DNA of 45,452 bases. It comes from Fibrobacterota bacterium (GTDB lineage Bacteria > Fibrobacterota > Fibrobacteria > UBA11236). The DNA lies in contig JAQBPN010000057.1 in the NCBI GenBank assembly GCA_028287505.1, forward strand, positions 1 through 45,452. Direction: 5' to 3'. The notes under the pieces are model-generated. The model saw only the letters and a program-made list of their open reading frames with translations, was not told the DNA's origin and did not search any database. Both the position numbers and the translations under genes were made by a program. Position 1 is the stretch's first letter. Each line of letters starts with the position of its first letter. This document shows positions 38,594 through 45,452 of this stretch, piece after piece.

Positions 38594-39634
38594 ATGGAAA
38601 CCTTTGAAAATACCTGGGAAATAAAAGGTGACAGCCCTGCCGTAGATTTTGCCTTTGCAGTTACAAAGGAAATCGCGGATATGGCTAGGAAACAGCTTCC
38701 CGAATTTGCCGAAATGTTTCCTTTTCGAAGACAATGGGAGGCAAATGCAACATTTTCCAATGGCTGTACTGCAATTTTGCTTCGTGAGACTACTGGAAAT
38801 GGTGTCCCTTCAATTGGCGAGATAAAAGAAACCGACTTATTGAACAAAATCCAAGAATTCTCAAGAGGAAAAGAGCACCCGTCATTCGAAGAAATTTACA
38901 GCTTCTTTGGAAGCTACTATTTCAATTTTGATCAATTCCTATACATCGGAAAATATGACAATTCAAAACTAAGCTGGCGCCACATATTAACTGTCTTAGT
39001 AGAATGGATAAATAGAATTGTGGTTCCGGTCGTTTTGAAAAACAATGAAAAAAGGGTTCTAAGCGCAATTCCTATCCCTCCACAATTTGAAGTCGGCAAG
39101 CTAACCCCAAATGTTTTTGTGCTAGAAAGTGAAAAACACTCGAGGCAGGGCACATGCTTTCATCTTGCGGGCATCGGTCTTGTAACTTGCGAACACGCTT
39201 TTTGTGAAGAAATGAGTGTTTTTCGGAGTAGTAGCATTAACAATAAAGTGAAAACACATCTCGTTAAAAGCAACGCGACCATCGATTTAGCAATCTTGAA
39301 AGCGGACGGCTTCGAGTTAGGTACTGGACTTGAAATCGGTTCCTCCGATAACTTGAAAATAATGGATCATATTGCCTCGATTGGATTTCCGAATTATCGA
39401 TATGGAGATACGGGTGTCTTTTCTCCGGGATTAGTAGTTGGTTTTAGACCAGTGTCAGGGATTAGAAGAATCCTAGTCAATACGCCATTAATTTCCGGCA
39501 ATAGTGGTGGGCCAGTGGTTGACAGATTCGGAAAAGTCATTGGAGTAGTTGTCACCGGAGCGGACCGAATGGAAAATGCAAATGGAACTGAAAATCATGG
39601 GGTTATCCCAATTGAAGCCCTAAAACTATTGTAA
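38594..39634 (+). CDS. Trypsin-like serine protease with N-terminal extension
   Basis: 346 residues; TAAGGA 5 bases before the ATG. Residues about 180-340 form a chymotrypsin-like domain: GTCFHLAGIGLVTCEHAF with His201, IDLAILK with Asp231, and LISGNSGGPVVD with Ser304, so the triad is complete. Residues 1-175 are a helical region of unknown family with WEANATFSNGCTAILLRE. There is no signal peptide, so it acts in the cytoplasm, which is typical of proteases in anti-phage systems, not of digestive ones. Low GC and the cassette borders suggest recent transfer. The target or trigger is unknown. Confidence 0.85.
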   Translation: METFENTWEIKGDSPAVDFAFAVTKEIADMARKQLPEFAEMFPFRRQWEANATFSNGCTAILLRETTGNGVPSIGEIKETDLLNKIQEFSRGKEHPSFEEIYSFFGSYYFNFDQFLYIGKYDNSKLSWRHILTVLVEWINRIVVPVVLKNNEKRVLSAIPIPPQFEVGKLTPNVFVLESEKHSRQGTCFHLAGIGLVTCEHAFCEEMSVFRSSSINNKVKTHLVKSNATIDLAILKADGFELGTGLEIGSSDNLKIMDHIASIGFPNYRYGDTGVFSPGLVVGFRPVSGIRRILVNTPLISGNSGGPVVDRFGKVIGVVVTGADRMENANGTENHGVIPIEALKLL

Positions 39635-39682
39635 TCAAGAAATAAATGCCACCCCCAGTAAATACGGAACGGCATAACGATC

Positions 39683-39960
39683 GCTCAACAAGGACCCAGC
39701 CAGGAACCCGCGGGCATGCGTTCGCATTGCGGGTTTGCAAATGGCCTGGGAAGGCTGCGCGGCAATTCGCACTCAACTTCGAGCTGGTGCTTACGCGTTC
39801 CTCCTCCCATTCGGTCGTCGTCAGCGTTAGCTGGCTCTCAGTTGGTGCTCATTGCATGCTGCGCGCGTGAACTACAGGGGCTATAGCGCCCCACTCCGTT
39901 CACGTGCTCGCATGTCGCGCGTGCCTTCCTAGGCCACTTCTGGCTGGGCCAACGTTATGT
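39683..39960 (+). repeat. Large attC-like site 1
   Basis: Cores GCTCAAC (39683-39689) and GTTATGT (39954-39960). Outer stem CCCAGCCAG (39695-39703) with CTGGCTGGG (39940-39948). Main stem AAATGGCCTGGGAAGGC (39739-39755) with GCCTTCCTAGGCCACTT (39923-39939), 15 of 17 plus one G-T pair. Central GGGGCTATAGCGCCCC hairpin inside a GTGAAC/GTTCAC stem. Fills the gap between cassette A and B genes. Confidence 0.75.
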
Positions 39961-40047: not shown

Positions 40048-40107
40048 ATGAGGATTGTCTCTCGAATACTAAAACTTAAGCGCCAAAATAAAATGGAGGG
40101 AATATAA
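40048..40107 (+). CDS. Putative 19-residue leader peptide
   Basis: An ATG at 40048 with GCAGGAG 5 bases before it opens a 19-residue frame, MRIVSRILKLKRQNKMEGI, whose TAA overlaps the ATG of the next gene as TAATG. This arrangement suggests translational coupling. The peptide is basic and could be a leader or simply an entry site for ribosomes. Too short to judge by composition alone. Confidence 0.4.
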   Translation: MRIVSRILKLKRQNKMEGI

Positions 40108-40328
40108 TGAGCAAATCGACTGTTGACCTTTGTTCAATTATGAGGGCTGGAGGTGGGGTTAAATTGCCCTGTAATAGATCTGCTGTAGACTTTAGCTCGA
40201 TAGCTCGTGCCGGTGGTGACAGTGGTGCCAAACTTACAATTACGGGCGCTGAAGCACTTTCAACGGTGGACCTCTGCTCTATTGGAAGGGCAAATCCAGG
40301 AAACGTGTTTTTTGAATTTTCAAGTTAG
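40107..40328 (+). CDS. Small protein of three imperfect repeats
   Basis: 73 residues. GGAGGG lies 7 bases before ATG 40107, and the TAATG overlap with the peptide ORF suggests coupling. The protein is almost wholly three repeats: STVDLCSIMRAGGG, SAVDFSSIARAGGD and STVDLCSIGRANPG, followed by short Lys/Thr-rich or Phe-rich tails. The repeat core is S-x-VD-x-x-SI-x-RA. There is no membrane segment or signal. No family is recognised. It stands in front of the RNase H-like gene, separated by the hairpin at 40329-40358, so it could be a regulator or partner of that enzyme. Confidence 0.6.
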   Translation: MSKSTVDLCSIMRAGGGVKLPCNRSAVDFSSIARAGGDSGAKLTITGAEALSTVDLCSIGRANPGNVFFEFSS

Positions 40329-40377: not shown

Positions 40378-41265
40378 ATGGATAATCCATACGCTATCTA
40401 TGTCAACTGCGATGGTGCAATGGACTATCAAAAAGGGAATCCTGGCGGAGTAGGATTCTTCGTCAGATTTCCAGAATCTGTTGCCCTTGAACCAATAGGT
40501 ATCTCGGTTGGTACCTATTTGCATGGCAATATTGAAAGATTGGAAATCGAAGCCCTTATTCAGGCTATGAAAAAAACAAAAGACATTTTTTTCGAGCATT
40601 TGGAAATGCTGAAAAATGTAAACACAATAATATTCATAACAGATAGACTTGGCCTAAGCGACAAGGCAAAGACCTCTCCCTATAAAATCAAAGAATGGAA
40701 GTCTAACGGCTGGAAAAACCACGAAGACAAACCTATCAAGAATCATAAATTACTGGGAGAGTTGGATCGAGAAAGAAGAAAACTGGCTTCGGCAACCAAG
40801 TCGCAGGTCCGAATCGAATGGAGAAGACGAAAGTTCAACAAAAAGGCTGACAAACTTGCCAAGGCTGGGAAAGGCGCTGGCACACAAAAGTTTAAGCTGT
40901 GGAATGCTGGTGAAAAGATTGGAAGAAGAAAACTCGAAGGCGATGAAGTCAATTATCGCCTCATCCTTCCGAACGATGAATATCACGTAAATATATTTCG
41001 GAAAGATCCGGTCCAGGACAAGTGGGAAGTTTGGGCCGAAATATGTAGCGGAGATTCTCAGGGACAAAAACTGAAAATCTACGCGGAAGATATTTTGGCC
41101 AAAGAATTAAACCGTGGTAATGAGTTCAAGATCAGAATCAAAAACGTATTTAATTTCCACGTGGAAATATTTGGAAGCCTTCAGAAAAAAAGGAAGGTAG
41201 TTAAGGAATCCAATTCAAAAAAGAAATCAAAAGAAGAAAAAGATGCCCCCCAAAACAGCGAATAA
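40378..41265 (+). CDS. RNase H-like domain protein with basic C-terminus
   Basis: 295 residues. The N-terminal about 165 residues match the RNase HI fold: YVNCDGA with Asp12, ERLEIEALIQAM with Glu56, IIFITDR with Asp89 and NKKADKLAKAG with Asp158, so all four acidic catalytic residues are present. Residues about 190-265 form a second, strand-rich domain of unknown family (YRLILPNDEYHVNIFRKDP). The C-terminal tail is Lys-rich. Such an enzyme would cut RNA in RNA-DNA hybrids. The ribosome-binding site is poor and the start lies just after a hairpin, suggesting low or regulated translation. The last codons overlap the inner C-rich repeat and the cassette-end repeat. Confidence 0.75.
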   Translation: MDNPYAIYVNCDGAMDYQKGNPGGVGFFVRFPESVALEPIGISVGTYLHGNIERLEIEALIQAMKKTKDIFFEHLEMLKNVNTIIFITDRLGLSDKAKTSPYKIKEWKSNGWKNHEDKPIKNHKLLGELDRERRKLASATKSQVRIEWRRRKFNKKADKLAKAGKGAGTQKFKLWNAGEKIGRRKLEGDEVNYRLILPNDEYHVNIFRKDPVQDKWEVWAEICSGDSQGQKLKIYAEDILAKELNRGNEFKIRIKNVFNFHVEIFGSLQKKRKVVKESNSKKKSKEEKDAPQNSE

Positions 41266-41279
41266 GGACGGGTTACAGC

Positions 41280-41559
41280 ACATAACACGCGCCAGTAGGA
41301 AAACCCCCGGGCATGCTCCGCATTGGGGTTTCGCAAATGGGCTGCGAGACCTACCCGGCAATTCAGATTGGGTTTCGGATTGCGCTTATGTGTTTCTCTC
41401 TCCCCATTCGGGTCGAGAGAAAACCTTAGCTTGCCTCAACCCATCTTCATTGCGCGCTGCGGGTGCTCATTTCGGGGGCGGTAGCGCCCCACTTCATTCG
41501 CATCCTCGCGCAACGGGTATGATCTCGCAGCCCACTTTCTACTGGCGCAAACGTTGGGT
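41280..41559 (+). repeat. Large attC-like site 2
   Basis: Cores ACATAAC (41280-41286) and GTTGGGT (41553-41559). Outer stem GCGCCAGTAG (41289-41298) with CTACTGGCGC (41539-41548), 10 of 10. Main stem AAATGGGCTGCGAGA (41335-41349) with TCTCGCAGCCCACTT (41523-41537), 14 of 15. Central GGTAGCGCCCC hairpin. Fills the gap between genes. Confidence 0.75.
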
Positions 41560-41656: not shown

Positions 41657-42415
41657 ATGGGACGGAAAACTGACAAAGAATACTTGCTTGAATTGCTGCC
41701 TCAAGATGGCACGGCCATGGGCAATTCCAATCTGAAAAAGACTTTAGGGTGGAACGAAGACAAATATTGGGATGTTCGAAACAACCTTCTGGAAGAAGGT
41801 TTAGTTTCTCTTGGCCGTGGAAAAGGCGGATCCATCTTCAAAGTGTTAACCGAAGAGAAGACCCCAAAAATTGTCTCGGTCTATCAAAGTGAGAAAAGCC
41901 TATACCAGCCATTTGCGGAAGCTATTGCAAAGGGGTATACGAAAGACAAGGATATAAAAACTTTCATTATTCAGGAAACTGCGAATCAAGGCAAGAAGCT
42001 TACTGGCGGAAGGTGGACTCGGCCAGATGTAGTAATGATTTCTATGAATACCTACTCCTTTGTGCCCGGCAAGTATCTAGATGTAATAACTTTTGAAATA
42101 AAGCCATCTACGGATTTCCAAATTACAGGCGTTTTTGAAACTGCGGCCCATTCAAGATTTGCCACCAAGAGCTATCTATGCGTGCACTTGCCTGAAGATT
42201 GGGATGACACAAATCCCGAATATGAAAGGATCAAGGCCGAGTGTGGAAGATTCGGAGTCGGTCTTATGTATTTCACTAATCCGGCCGACTACGATACCTA
42301 TGAAATCTTGGTCGAACCCAAAAGATGGAACCCCGATCCGGCAGATACCGATTCATTTATTTCGGTTCAAATAGGTGATAAGGAAAAAAAGAAAATCCTG
42401 GAATGGTCCCGCTAA
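41657..42415 (+). CDS. Winged-helix / PD-(D/E)XK nuclease-like protein
   Basis: 252 residues; TAAGG and GAAGGAG stand before ATG 41657. Residues about 20-65 look like a winged helix (NLKKTLGWNEDKYWDVRNNLLEEGLVSLGRGKGGSIFKV). Residues about 115-220 contain the PD-(D/E)XK-like arrangement: RPDVVMIS with Asp124, then 23 residues later ITFEIKP with Glu147 and Lys149, followed by a helix HSRFATKSYL. The signature is compact and complete, so a DNA-cutting or DNA-binding role is likely, though I cannot name the family. It is the only gene of its cassette, so a single-gene defence or toxin role is an inference. Confidence 0.75.
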   Translation: MGRKTDKEYLLELLPQDGTAMGNSNLKKTLGWNEDKYWDVRNNLLEEGLVSLGRGKGGSIFKVLTEEKTPKIVSVYQSEKSLYQPFAEAIAKGYTKDKDIKTFIIQETANQGKKLTGGRWTRPDVVMISMNTYSFVPGKYLDVITFEIKPSTDFQITGVFETAAHSRFATKSYLCVHLPEDWDDTNPEYERIKAECGRFGVGLMYFTNPADYDTYEILVEPKRWNPDPADTDSFISVQIGDKEKKKILEWSR

Positions 42416-42467: not shown

Positions 42468-42746
42468 ACTCAACACGCGCCATGGGGGGAGCCCGCGGGC
42501 ATGCGTTCGCATTGCGGGCTCGCAAATGGCTTGGGAAGGGTGCGCGGCAATTCGCACAGCGCTTCGGGCTGGCGCTTACGCGTCGCCGCCTCCCATTTGG
42601 TCGTCAGCGAGCGTTAGCTGGCCCTCAGCGGTGTTCATTGCACGCTGCGGGCGTTGGCAACGGGGCTGTAGCGCCCCACTTTGCCAACGTCCTCGCGTGT
42701 CGCGCATCCCTTCCCAGGCCACTTCGCCATGACGCAAACGTTGGGT
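42468..42746 (+). repeat. Large attC-like site 3
   Basis: Cores ACTCAAC (42468-42474, exact RYYYAAC) and GTTGGGT (42740-42746, exact GTTRRRY). Outer stem GCGCCATGG (42477-42485) with CCATGACGC (42727-42735), 8 of 9. Main stem AAATGGCTTGGGAAGGG (42524-42540) with CCCTTCCCAGGCCACTT (42708-42724), 15 of 17. A GAGCCCGC hairpin and a GGGGCTGTAGCGCCCC hairpin within a GTTGGCAA stem lie inside. Confidence 0.78.
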
Positions 42747-42795: not shown

Positions 42796-42848
42796 TAAAA
42801 ATGATTAATTTTCTGGGGGCAAGAGAAGACAATTACTCGGAGGTTTTC

Positions 42849-44870
42849 TTGGCTCAAAAGATCCAGATCGGAACAAAAGGCGTAAAAAAGGCGCTCAATA
42901 GTTTTAATTGCCAAGAGGCCATAGCTGAGTTCATCTGGAACGGATTTGATGCGCGCGCAACGATTGTAGAAGTCTCCTTTGTTGAAAACTTATTCAATGG
43001 TTTAGAATCGATTACAGTTCGAGACAACGGGGATGGAATTCCAAAAAGTGAACTTCGAGTCAAGTTCAAACCATTTTTAGAGTCAGCTAAAAGATTCGCA
43101 CTTAAAGCGGATGAGCACTCCTCAATTGCTCGAGGCAAAAACGGAGTTGGGAGGCTGACATTTTTTAAATTTGCATCGAGCGCAGTCTGGTCAACGACAT
43201 ACCAGAAAAATGAAAAACATTACAACTACAAAATTATGGTAAGTGCTGAATCGATTCAGGAATACACTGAATCCGAAGAAGTCGAAACGACAGAGCCATG
43301 CGGCACATTAGTTCGGTTCTTAGGAGTAAAGGAAGATCTGTTTCGAGGCCCGAACGAAGGAAAGCTTCTAGAACATTTGTCCAAGGAGTTTTGTTGGTAT
43401 CTTGAATTATCAAAGTCAAACAACAAAACAATCATTGTTAATGACAACAAAATTACCTATGACCACTTGGTATTGCAGCGCGAGACCCAAAACTTTTTTC
43501 ACCCCGAAAGCAAAACTGATTTTCAGGTCGATTTTATTCTATGGGACAAGAATCTCGACACTGAATATTCAAAGATTTACTATCAAGATTTTGAGGGCGT
43601 AGAAAAGTACAAGGAAAACACCACACTAAACCATCAAGGTGACCGATTTTTCCATAGCATCTACGTAAGAAGCTCCTTTTTCAATTCCTTTAGCTTTAAA
43701 AAATCCGATGCCCCACAAGAGGATCTTCTTTCCGGGAATCGCTCCTCGAACGCGTTTAAGTATTTAAAAGATGAGCTGTTAAAATTTTTAAAACTGAAGC
43801 GAAAGGGTCTGCTTCGAGAATTTGCGGACAAGCTAGTGGCATCATACGAGGTGGACGGAGTTTTTCCATCATTTGGAAACAATTCTTGGGATGGTTATCG
43901 AAAAGCCGAACTAGAGGAATTAATTCGGGGGCTATATGAAGCGCAGCCTAAAATATTCAATGGTCTTAAAATCGAGCAGAAAAAAACATTTGTGAGAATA
44001 TTGAACCTCCTGCTTGATTCAAATGAGCGAGATAACTTATTCGATATTCTCGAAGGTGTCGTTGAGCTTGATCCCGAAGAAAGGCAGGAGATTTCCTCGA
44101 TTCTTAAGGTCACAACCTTGTCCAGAATTACTCAGACAATCGGATTAATTGCTGAGAGGGAGCGAGTAATACACGAACTTAAACAATTGGTTTGGAATGA
44201 AGACATTGGCGCAAACGAAATCGACCATCTTCAATCAGCAATAGAACATCACTATTGGGTTTTTGGTGAAGAGTACAATTTAGTTTCGGCGGCAGAACCA
44301 GATTTTGAAGAGGCACTTCGCAGGTACCTATTTTTGCTCAAGGGAGAAAAAGAGGCAGTAAAAATTGCTCACCCTGGAAAAAACAAAGAGATGGATATTT
44401 TCGCTTGCCGTCAAATTCACCACTCAAAGTCTATTGAAAATATCGTTGTTGAGCTAAAGCATCCCAACATCTTATTGGGGGAAAAGGAAGTCGGGCAAGT
44501 TAAAGGATATATGAGCACGATTCTTTCTGAACAGAGATTCAATGGCTCAAATATGTCCTGGAAATTTTACTTAGTCGGCAACCGCTTCAATACAAGCAAT
44601 TTTATTGAAGGCGAACTTGAAAATGCGAAGAGCCACGGCGAGCCGTCGCTTATTTACAAATCGGGTAAGCTCAAGTTTTATGTAAAAACCTGGAGCGAGG
44701 TTTTTGCTGATTTAGAAATTCGGTTTAACTACTTGAATAAGAAATTATTAATTGAAAGAGAGCGACTTAGTTCAGCAGGGAGGTCCGCTAACGAAATTGT
44801 TGAAGACCTTTCTCGAAGCTCGGCTTCGCAACCAGGTGAAACTATTCCAGTAAAAGAAGCTGCGTATTAG
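42849..44870 (+). CDS. GHKL ATPase fused to Shedu/DUF4263-like nuclease domain
   Basis: 673 residues from TTG 42849, chosen because GGAGG lies 5 bases upstream; the ATG at 42801 falls inside the conserved leader motif AATGATTA found in other cassettes and is not a start. Residues 15-200 are a GHKL ATPase: Glu27 and Asn31 (EFIWNGFDA), VRDNGDGI (Asp59) and RGKNGVGR (96-102). Residues about 470-620 resemble Shedu/DUF4263: WVFGEEYNLVSAAEPDFEEALRRYL, DIFACR (Asp516) and NIVVELKHP (Glu535, Lys537). The middle is helical. In known defence proteins an ATPase-nuclease pair senses phage and cuts nucleic acid; here that is inference. It is the sole gene of the last cassette. Confidence 0.82.
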   Translation: MAQKIQIGTKGVKKALNSFNCQEAIAEFIWNGFDARATIVEVSFVENLFNGLESITVRDNGDGIPKSELRVKFKPFLESAKRFALKADEHSSIARGKNGVGRLTFFKFASSAVWSTTYQKNEKHYNYKIMVSAESIQEYTESEEVETTEPCGTLVRFLGVKEDLFRGPNEGKLLEHLSKEFCWYLELSKSNNKTIIVNDNKITYDHLVLQRETQNFFHPESKTDFQVDFILWDKNLDTEYSKIYYQDFEGVEKYKENTTLNHQGDRFFHSIYVRSSFFNSFSFKKSDAPQEDLLSGNRSSNAFKYLKDELLKFLKLKRKGLLREFADKLVASYEVDGVFPSFGNNSWDGYRKAELEELIRGLYEAQPKIFNGLKIEQKKTFVRILNLLLDSNERDNLFDILEGVVELDPEERQEISSILKVTTLSRITQTIGLIAERERVIHELKQLVWNEDIGANEIDHLQSAIEHHYWVFGEEYNLVSAAEPDFEEALRRYLFLLKGEKEAVKIAHPGKNKEMDIFACRQIHHSKSIENIVVELKHPNILLGEKEVGQVKGYMSTILSEQRFNGSNMSWKFYLVGNRFNTSNFIEGELENAKSHGEPSLIYKSGKLKFYVKTWSEVFADLEIRFNYLNKKLLIERERLSSAGRSANEIVEDLSRSSASQPGETIPVKEAAY

Positions 44871-44927: not shown

Positions 44928-45184
44928 ACTCAACACGGCGCAGTGCGCTCCGCGCGGGATTCCATTCTCGCTCCAGGGCTTCGCCCAAATTGGTTTTGGG
45001 GCGTGCCCGGCAATTCAGACTGGGATTCGGCTGCGCTGACTTTCACTGATTTTTTCTCGTTCGGTCTACGTTAGCTTGCCTCAACCCGTCTTCATTGCTT
45101 GCTGCGGTCGGGAATTCCAGGGGCATAGGTCCCACTCCATTCCCGTCCTCGCAAATCGGGCAAGCCCCAAAACCAACGTCGCCC
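44928..45184 (+). repeat. Large attC-like site 4, cut by an insertion sequence
   Basis: Core ACTCAAC (44928-44934) is present; the right core is lost. The main stem TTGGTTTTGGGGCGTGCCCG (44990-45009) pairs with CGGGCAAGCCCCAAAACCAA (45157-45176), 19 of 20, the longest stem of all. GGGAAT/ATTCCC forms the apical stem. The sequence departs from the other copies at about 45185. Confidence 0.72.
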
Positions 45185-45452
45185 TGCTGGTCTTATCGGC
45201 CAATTTTCGAACCGGTTCAGGCTACAGATTTAAGGTTATAAAATTCATTCGGTGACTTCATCTCCAAAGCTGAATGCGGTGCAAAAGTATTGTAGTCATC
45301 GACCCACTCCTTGATCATTCTTCTGACCTCTTCTTCCGAGTCCAAACAATTCTGGTACACATAATCCCGCTTGAAGGTTCCATTAAAGGCCTCGCACATG
45401 CCATTGGATTGAGGCGAATACGTCGGGGTGTTGCAATTGATGATGTTCCAAT
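45185..45452 (-). mobile_element. IS3-family insertion sequence, one end only
   Basis: The element appears to start with TGCTGGTCTTATCGG at 45185, the TG terminus typical of IS3-family elements, and contains the end of an OrfB transposase on the minus strand. It runs off the window, so the other terminal repeat and any target duplication cannot be checked. Confidence 0.6.
45217..45452 (-). CDS. IS3-family transposase OrfB, C-terminal part
   Basis: The last 77 residues are in view; the N-terminus is beyond the window edge. YSPQSNGMCEAFNGTFKRDYVYQNCLDSEEEVRRMIKEWVDDYNTFAPHSALEMKSPNEFYNL is the typical end of the integrase-type DDE domain, with the third catalytic residue, the Glu of NGMCEAF, visible. 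It catalyses cut-and-copy insertion of its own element. The family usually makes OrfAB by frameshifting; the upstream orf is not visible. Its insertion has damaged the last attC-like site. Confidence 0.93.
   Translation of the reverse strand, partial: WNIINCNTPTYSPQSNGMCEAFNGTFKRDYVYQNCLDSEEEVRRMIKEWVDDYNTFAPHSALEMKSPNEFYNLKSVA

What the first reader, a model, noticed from the sequence alone, without database searches (positions are those of the whole stretch)
42849..44870. Single-gene GHKL ATPase plus Shedu-like nuclease as a cassette
Bergerat-fold motifs (EFIWNGFDA, VRDNGDGI, RGKNGVGR) and a C-terminal D..ELK signature in a Shedu/DUF4263-like context appear in one protein. Shedu-family proteins are known anti-phage effectors; the fused ATPase would be the sensor. 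Its presence on a movable cassette supports a defence cargo.
Basis: partly seen in the sequence, partly recalled or inferred. Interest (0 to 1): 0.62.

Follow-up and report, generated by a model that had tools for sequence, protein, structure and literature searches.

The report
GHKL-ATPase Shedu-type defence nuclease
This gene encodes a single protein that joins an Hsp90/MutL-like ATPase to a Shedu-like DNA-cutting domain, the same design as VcSduA, a published anti-phage protein of Vibrio cholerae, so it is most likely one more member of a known bacterial immune family, here carried on a mobile-looking gene cassette.

Summary
One intact ORF (TTG 42849 to 44870, 673 aa, with a GGAGG ribosome-binding site) carries a complete GHKL ATPase (HATPase_c_3, E 6.7e-17) and a C-terminal PD-(D/E)XK nuclease domain. 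Pfam's DUF4263/SduA_C model does not detect it directly. However, 18 intact full-length relatives (31-47% identity, spread over bacteria and one archaeon) keep every catalytic residue. The best structural match of the predicted C-domain is the B. cereus Shedu nuclease (Z 10.3), tied with BspD6I-type nucleases. A second GHKL protein family that does pass the SduA_C cut-off links the two by profile comparison. The same architecture is published: paraMORC3 (2008), and VcSduA, a phage-defence Shedu with an N-terminal GHKL ATPase whose E27A and K557A mutants lose defence (2025). Here the corresponding residues are E27 and K537. Relatives sit in P4-satellite cargo slots, a phage moron position, plasmids, and beside restriction-modification and retron genes. 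The gene lies in an AT-rich block with ~270-nt attC-like repeats. Anti-phage activity of this gene is inferred, not shown.

The parts
42849..44870 (+). GHKL-ATPase/Shedu-type nuclease gene, 673 aa, TTG start
42839..42843 (+). Shine-Dalgarno GGAGG, 5 nt before the TTG start
   Evidence: sequence
42927..42953 (+). GHKL N-box EFIWNGFDA (E27, N31, D34); E27 is the residue number mutated in VcSduA (E27A)
   Evidence: PMC12137116
43023..43040 (+). GHKL G1 box DNGDGI (residues 59-64)
43131..43154 (+). GHKL G2/lid RGKNGVGR (residues 95-102)
44145..44810 (+). C-terminal PD-(D/E)XK (Shedu-like) nuclease domain with preceding helix, modelled on its own
44394..44396 (+). predicted catalytic D516 (MDIF)
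   Evidence: invariant; aligned to the Shedu D
44451..44459 (+). predicted catalytic E535-L-K537 (ELK)
   Evidence: E and K invariant; aligned to Shedu EIK
42468..42746 (+). attC-like element upstream: ACTCAAC ... GTTGGGT, strong imperfect hairpin
44928..45190 (+). attC-like element downstream (ACTCAAC at its 5' end; 3' GTTRRRY not found, possibly degenerate; its 3' end is approximate)

Best explanation
It is a stand-alone anti-phage nuclease of the VcSduA / paraMORC3 type (a Shedu nuclease with a GHKL ATPase regulatory domain). The N-terminal GHKL domain binds ATP and probably dimerises; the S5-like and helical middle part forms a clamp. ATP-driven closure, triggered by an unknown phage-linked DNA or protein signal, then licenses the C-terminal PD-(D/E)XK domain (D516, E535, K537) to cut DNA and restrict the phage. 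Shown here: the architecture, conservation of both active sites, the predicted folds, wide horizontal distribution and defence-type genomic settings. Shown by others for VcSduA: anti-phage activity that needs the GHKL glutamate and the nuclease lysine, with robust protection at all MOIs. Inferred: ATPase, dimerisation, DNA cleavage, the trigger and anti-phage activity of this particular protein.
For: HATPase_c_3 6.7e-17. 19-member family alignment with both catalytic sets conserved. GHKL half matches Hsp90/MORC structures, Z up to 17.9. C-domain model: best match B. cereus Shedu nuclease 8ti9 Z 10.3, 145 residues, 19% identity; E. coli SduA 8ps4 Z 9.5. PADLOC SduA models hit a few relatives, best E 1.5e-4 and 0.003. 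HSDR_N_2 (PD-(D/E)XK) hits 17 of 19 members, best 1.3e-5. Bridging protein L057 has both HATPase_c_3 (4e-28) and SduA_C above the Pfam cut-off; profile comparison: family vs bridge full length 99.6%, E 5.7e-24; C-domains 97.6%, E 2.6e-12; bridge C-domain vs annotated Shedu 95.5%, E 1.4e-8. VcSduA literature. Context: P4-like satellite cargo slot in two E. coli genomes, phage moron position, plasmids, type I/II/III RM, retron, DRT2 and ThsB neighbours.
Against: No direct Pfam SduA_C match in this protein or in 18 relatives. The direct family-vs-Shedu profile match is weak (45%, E 2e-4), no better than the HSDR_N_2 control (64%, E 6.5e-5). The structural Z for Shedu is tied with BspD6I nickase (9.8) and not far above FokI (8.6). 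VcSduA's own sequence could not be fetched, so identity to it is not measured. No PADLOC hit for this protein itself. The neighbourhood tally has no random control.
Confidence: 0.82

Rival explanations
1. A type II-like restriction enzyme of the GHKL BbrUII/HgiDII kind, cutting a fixed site and paired with a methyltransferase.
For: NCBIfam restrict_BbrUII hits the GHKL half of this protein, and PADLOC REase_II models hit some relatives, in those listed one by one within the GHKL half.
Against: The match is 38 bits against a 550-bit cut-off and covers residues 56-238 only. No methyltransferase in the neighbouring cassettes, and the relatives examined have no common partner gene.
Confidence: 0.07
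2. A GHKL protein with a generic PD-(D/E)XK domain (HSDR_N_2/FokI-like) unrelated by close descent to Shedu, working in a similar way.
For: Direct sequence signal is as good for HSDR_N_2 as for Shedu; VIA-align Z for BspD6I is tied with Shedu.
Against: Bridging GHKL family that passes the SduA_C cut-off and aligns over the full length; the Shedu hit has the top Z and the highest identity (19%) among the leading structural hits.
Confidence: 0.08
3. A DNA-repair or MutL-like housekeeping ATPase-nuclease, not a defence gene.
For: The GHKL domain resembles MutL/Mlh1 and Hsp90.
Against: Full-length relatives occur in 2 of 126 genomes of the class including this one, and elsewhere on satellites, plasmids, a phage and defence-rich loci. 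The nuclease domain is PD-(D/E)XK, not the MutL endonuclease.
Confidence: 0.03

Closest known systems
VcSduA (Shedu with N-terminal GHKL ATPase, V. cholerae VSP-II WASA; Shedu type I-D)
   Same: Single protein, GHKL ATPase then PD-(D/E)XK nuclease; catalytic glutamate at residue 27; nuclease lysine in the C-domain; found on a mobile island (PMC12137116).
   Different: Sequence not compared directly; nuclease lysine is K557 there and K537 here; anti-phage range of this protein untested; this one lies in a repeat-flanked cassette.
paraMORC3 family (Iyer, Abhiman and Aravind 2008)
   Same: GHKL + S5 + C-terminal E-D-ExK restriction-fold nuclease, partly stand-alone, sporadic and laterally moved (PMC2292703).
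   Different: Assignment here is by architecture, not by that paper's own profile.
Classical Shedu (SduA, DUF4263; B. cereus 8ti9, E. coli 8ps4)
   Same: Similar nuclease fold, D..ExK..Q order.
   Different: The annotated Shedu proteins fetched for comparison are ~350-430 aa, with no room for a full GHKL module plus middle domain; the Pfam SduA_C model does not match the window protein.
BbrUII/HgiDII GHKL restriction enzymes
   Same: GHKL ATPase in a DNA-cutting enzyme.
   Different: Score far below the family cut-off; C-terminal half unmatched; no methyltransferase nearby.

Membership tests
VcSduA-type Shedu (GHKL-Shedu, paraMORC3) | N-terminal GHKL ATPase with its ATP-binding motifs intact | tested here: met
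   HATPase_c_3 6.7e-17, motifs conserved across the family, Hsp90/MORC fold
VcSduA-type Shedu (GHKL-Shedu, paraMORC3) | C-terminal PD-(D/E)XK nuclease with D and ExK in order | tested here: met
   D516, E535, K537 invariant in 19 members; alpha-beta-beta-alpha-beta core in the model; top realigned structures are nucleases of this fold
VcSduA-type Shedu (GHKL-Shedu, paraMORC3) | C-domain belongs to DUF4263/SduA_C | tested here: inconclusive
   No Pfam hit; top structural match is Shedu but tied with others; bridge family passes the cut-off and aligns
VcSduA-type Shedu (GHKL-Shedu, paraMORC3) | Single-gene system without a conserved partner | tested here: met
   Different neighbours in annotated and fetched loci
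VcSduA-type Shedu (GHKL-Shedu, paraMORC3) | Anti-phage activity needing both active sites | not testable with these tools
   Shown for VcSduA only (PMC12137116)
Classical Shedu SduA (Pfam SduA_C) | Match above the Pfam gathering score | tested here: not met
BbrUII/HgiDII restriction enzyme | NCBIfam NF050001 cut-off and full-length match | tested here: not met
   38.2 bits vs 550, residues 56-238 only
Integron gene cassette | attC site: RYYYAAC ... GTTRRRY with folded hairpin | tested here: inconclusive
   Upstream copy has both ends and folds (z -7.6) but is ~279 nt long; the downstream copy lacks a clear 3' site
Integron gene cassette | Array linked to an IntI with the integron-specific patch | tested here: inconclusive
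   IntI over cut-off on contig C53, unlinked in the assembly; the array on C85 lies next to a recombinase below the cut-off (206 vs 265 bits)

The most novel reading that the evidence does not exclude
A full-size GHKL-Shedu defence gene travels as a repeat-flanked cassette whose ~270-nt attC-like sites are handled by a Xer-like recombinase without the integron-specific patch, that is, a defence-carrying cassette system distinct from classical integrons.
Probability: 0.1. Interest if true: 0.55.

Novelty: new member of a known kind. Interest (0 to 1): 0.27.

Why it matters
It adds to the evidence that GHKL-Shedu proteins are widespread and move as single-gene cargo on satellites, phages, plasmids and repeat-flanked cassettes. 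It also points to two concrete gaps. The Pfam SduA_C model misses this protein and all 18 aligned relatives and PADLOC models reach only a few of them, so the family is probably undercounted as a defence system. And how the GHKL ATPase gates a Shedu nuclease is, to my knowledge, still untested biochemically.

Tried and rejected
Direct Pfam/PADLOC search for DUF4263 in this protein: nothing. PDB sequence search with the C-domain profile: only a weak hit to Ceg10. The full-length model's PDB search is filled by the GHKL half and says nothing about the C-domain; Foldseek with the C-domain alone gave only weak hits, E 0.008 and up, led by nucleases, and Shedu came to the top only after realignment. 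Type II restriction enzyme with methylase: rejected for a low, half-length score and no methylase. MutL-like repair role: rejected on distribution. Cassette-region proteins next to the C85 recombinase: nearly all without a Pfam match.

Full report
What is there. The ORF at 42849-44870 (+) is real and intact. The best start is TTG 42849, preceded by GGAGG at 42839-42843. The 673-aa protein then begins like its relatives. Alignment position E43 (counted from the ATG at 42801) becomes E27, and K553 becomes K537.

N-terminal half. Pfam HATPase_c_3 matches at 6.7e-17. A structure model (mean pLDDT 79) aligns over about 180 residues to TRAP1/Hsp90 at Z 17.9 with rmsd 2.7, and to MORC2 at Z 16.7. An active ATPase is therefore likely; activity is inferred.

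C-terminal half. Pfam gives only sub-threshold restriction-endonuclease hits for this protein (HSDR_N_2 0.012, Mrr_cat 0.074). Across the family, HSDR_N_2 is hit in 17 of 19 members, best 1.3e-5, and PADLOC SduA models hit a few relatives, best 1.5e-4 and 0.003. D516, E535 and K537 are invariant. The domain modelled alone (mean pLDDT 77.5) has the alpha-beta-beta-alpha-beta order of the PD-(D/E)XK fold. Its best realigned PDB match is the B. cereus Shedu nuclease domain (8ti9, Z 10.3, rmsd 3.8, 145 aligned, 19% identity). E. coli SduA scores Z 9.5; BspD6I nickase (9.8) is tied and FokI (8.6) is not far below.

The link to DUF4263. In the same phylum a search with the Pfam SduA_C model found L057, a 589-aa protein with HATPase_c_3 (4e-28) and SduA_C above the cut-off (29.1 vs 27 bits) in one chain. 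Profile comparison gives: window family vs L057 family, full length, 99.6%, E 5.7e-24 over 563 columns; C-domains 97.6%, E 2.6e-12; L057-family C-domain vs annotated Shedu proteins 95.5%, E 1.4e-8. The direct comparison of the window family with classical Shedu is weak (45%, E 2.2e-4) and no better than the HSDR_N_2 control (64%, E 6.5e-5). So Shedu descent is supported by a bridge and by structure, not by direct sequence.

Family and context. One genome scan returned 23 loci encoding relatives. Eighteen of them are intact and full length and align with the window protein at 31-47% identity. They come from Bacteroidota, Firmicutes, cyanobacteria, candidate phyla, gammaproteobacteria and a Methanosarcinaceae archaeon. 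Within the host's class only this genome and one other of 126 carry a full-length member, which fits horizontal spread. Two E. coli relatives lie in P4-like satellites next to tRNA-Arg, downstream of the integrase, TOPRIM/DUF927 and ogr/Delta (in one also psu) genes, in the cargo position. One sits between tail genes of Pasteurella phage Pmp14. Others are on plasmids. Neighbouring ORFs within 6 kb of 18 family members include type I, II and III RM genes, a retron RT, DRT2 and ThsB; no random control was run, so this is qualitative.

Literature. Iyer et al. 2008 (PMC2292703) described paraMORC3: GHKL+S5 with a C-terminal E-D-ExK restriction-fold nuclease, partly stand-alone. The V. cholerae WASA study of 2025 (PMC12137116) showed that VcSduA, a GHKL ATPase with a C-terminal DUF4263 nuclease, protects against Drexlerviridae in E. 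coli and vibriophage X29 in V. cholerae; E27A and K557A abolish anti-phage activity, protection at all MOIs is read as direct restriction with host viability preserved, and a dimer is predicted. The authors relate it to paraMORC3 and to Shedu type I-D. The window protein matches this description in architecture and in the position of the key glutamate.

Cassette setting. The gene lies in a block that falls from about 55-66% to 41-46% GC after ~37.5 kb. It is flanked by members of a ~270-nt repeat family, whose upstream copy runs from ACTCAAC to GTTGGGT and folds far better than shuffles (z -7.6). The preceding genes (trypsin-like, RNase H-like, unknown protein) are separated by the same repeat. 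The genome has a genuine integron integrase on contig C53 (382.8 bits vs cut-off 265). The largest array of these repeats, on C85, lies next to a recombinase that scores below the integron cut-off and skips profile positions 182-236 (206 vs 265 bits). The repeats are longer than typical attC sites (own knowledge: roughly 57-141 nt). 'Integron cassette' is therefore plausible but not proved. Integron cassettes carrying phage defence are published (PMC12409362).

Mechanism. Most likely the GHKL domain cycles a dimeric clamp with ATP and licenses the Shedu nuclease to cut phage DNA once a trigger is bound. The steps up to architecture and conserved active sites are shown here; the requirement of both sites for defence is shown for VcSduA by others; the trigger, dimerisation and cutting by this protein are inferred.

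Verdict. It is a new member of a known kind.

Noticed in passing
window 39682-39960, 41279-41559, 42468-42746, 44928-45190; G000 contig C85 (L105, L106): A ~270-nt hairpin repeat family with attC-like ends separates single genes; C85 carries several more copies next to a Xer/IntI-like recombinase (L105:1996-3168) that scores below the integron-integrase cut-off and skips part of that profile. Most proteins tested in that region have no Pfam match.
   Followed up: partly
window 38594-39634: Trypsin-like protease whose catalytic domain matches the C-terminal protease part of the PADLOC RT-Protease_XI model (1.4e-36), but no reverse transcriptase is fused to it.
   Followed up: no
window 40378-41265: RNase H-like domain (E 1.5e-6) with an unknown C-terminal extension, as a separate cassette.
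   Followed up: no
window 40107-40328: Small ORF, read by eye, with a repeated motif (roughly S-T/A-V-D-L/F-C/S-S-I-x-R-A) just upstream of the RNase H-like gene.
   Followed up: no
window 41657-42415: Protein with no Pfam or PADLOC match that by eye has a winged-helix-like N-terminal part and an RPDVV...FEIKPS stretch resembling a PD-(D/E)XK nuclease; it is the cassette directly upstream.
   Followed up: no
L057 (G129:C41): GHKL + SduA_C protein with, by eye, a TIR-like ORF further downstream on the same strand, possibly a defence island.
   Followed up: no
window 45200-45452: By eye, an IS3-type transposase-like reading on the minus strand at the contig end, directly after the last repeat.
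   Followed up: no
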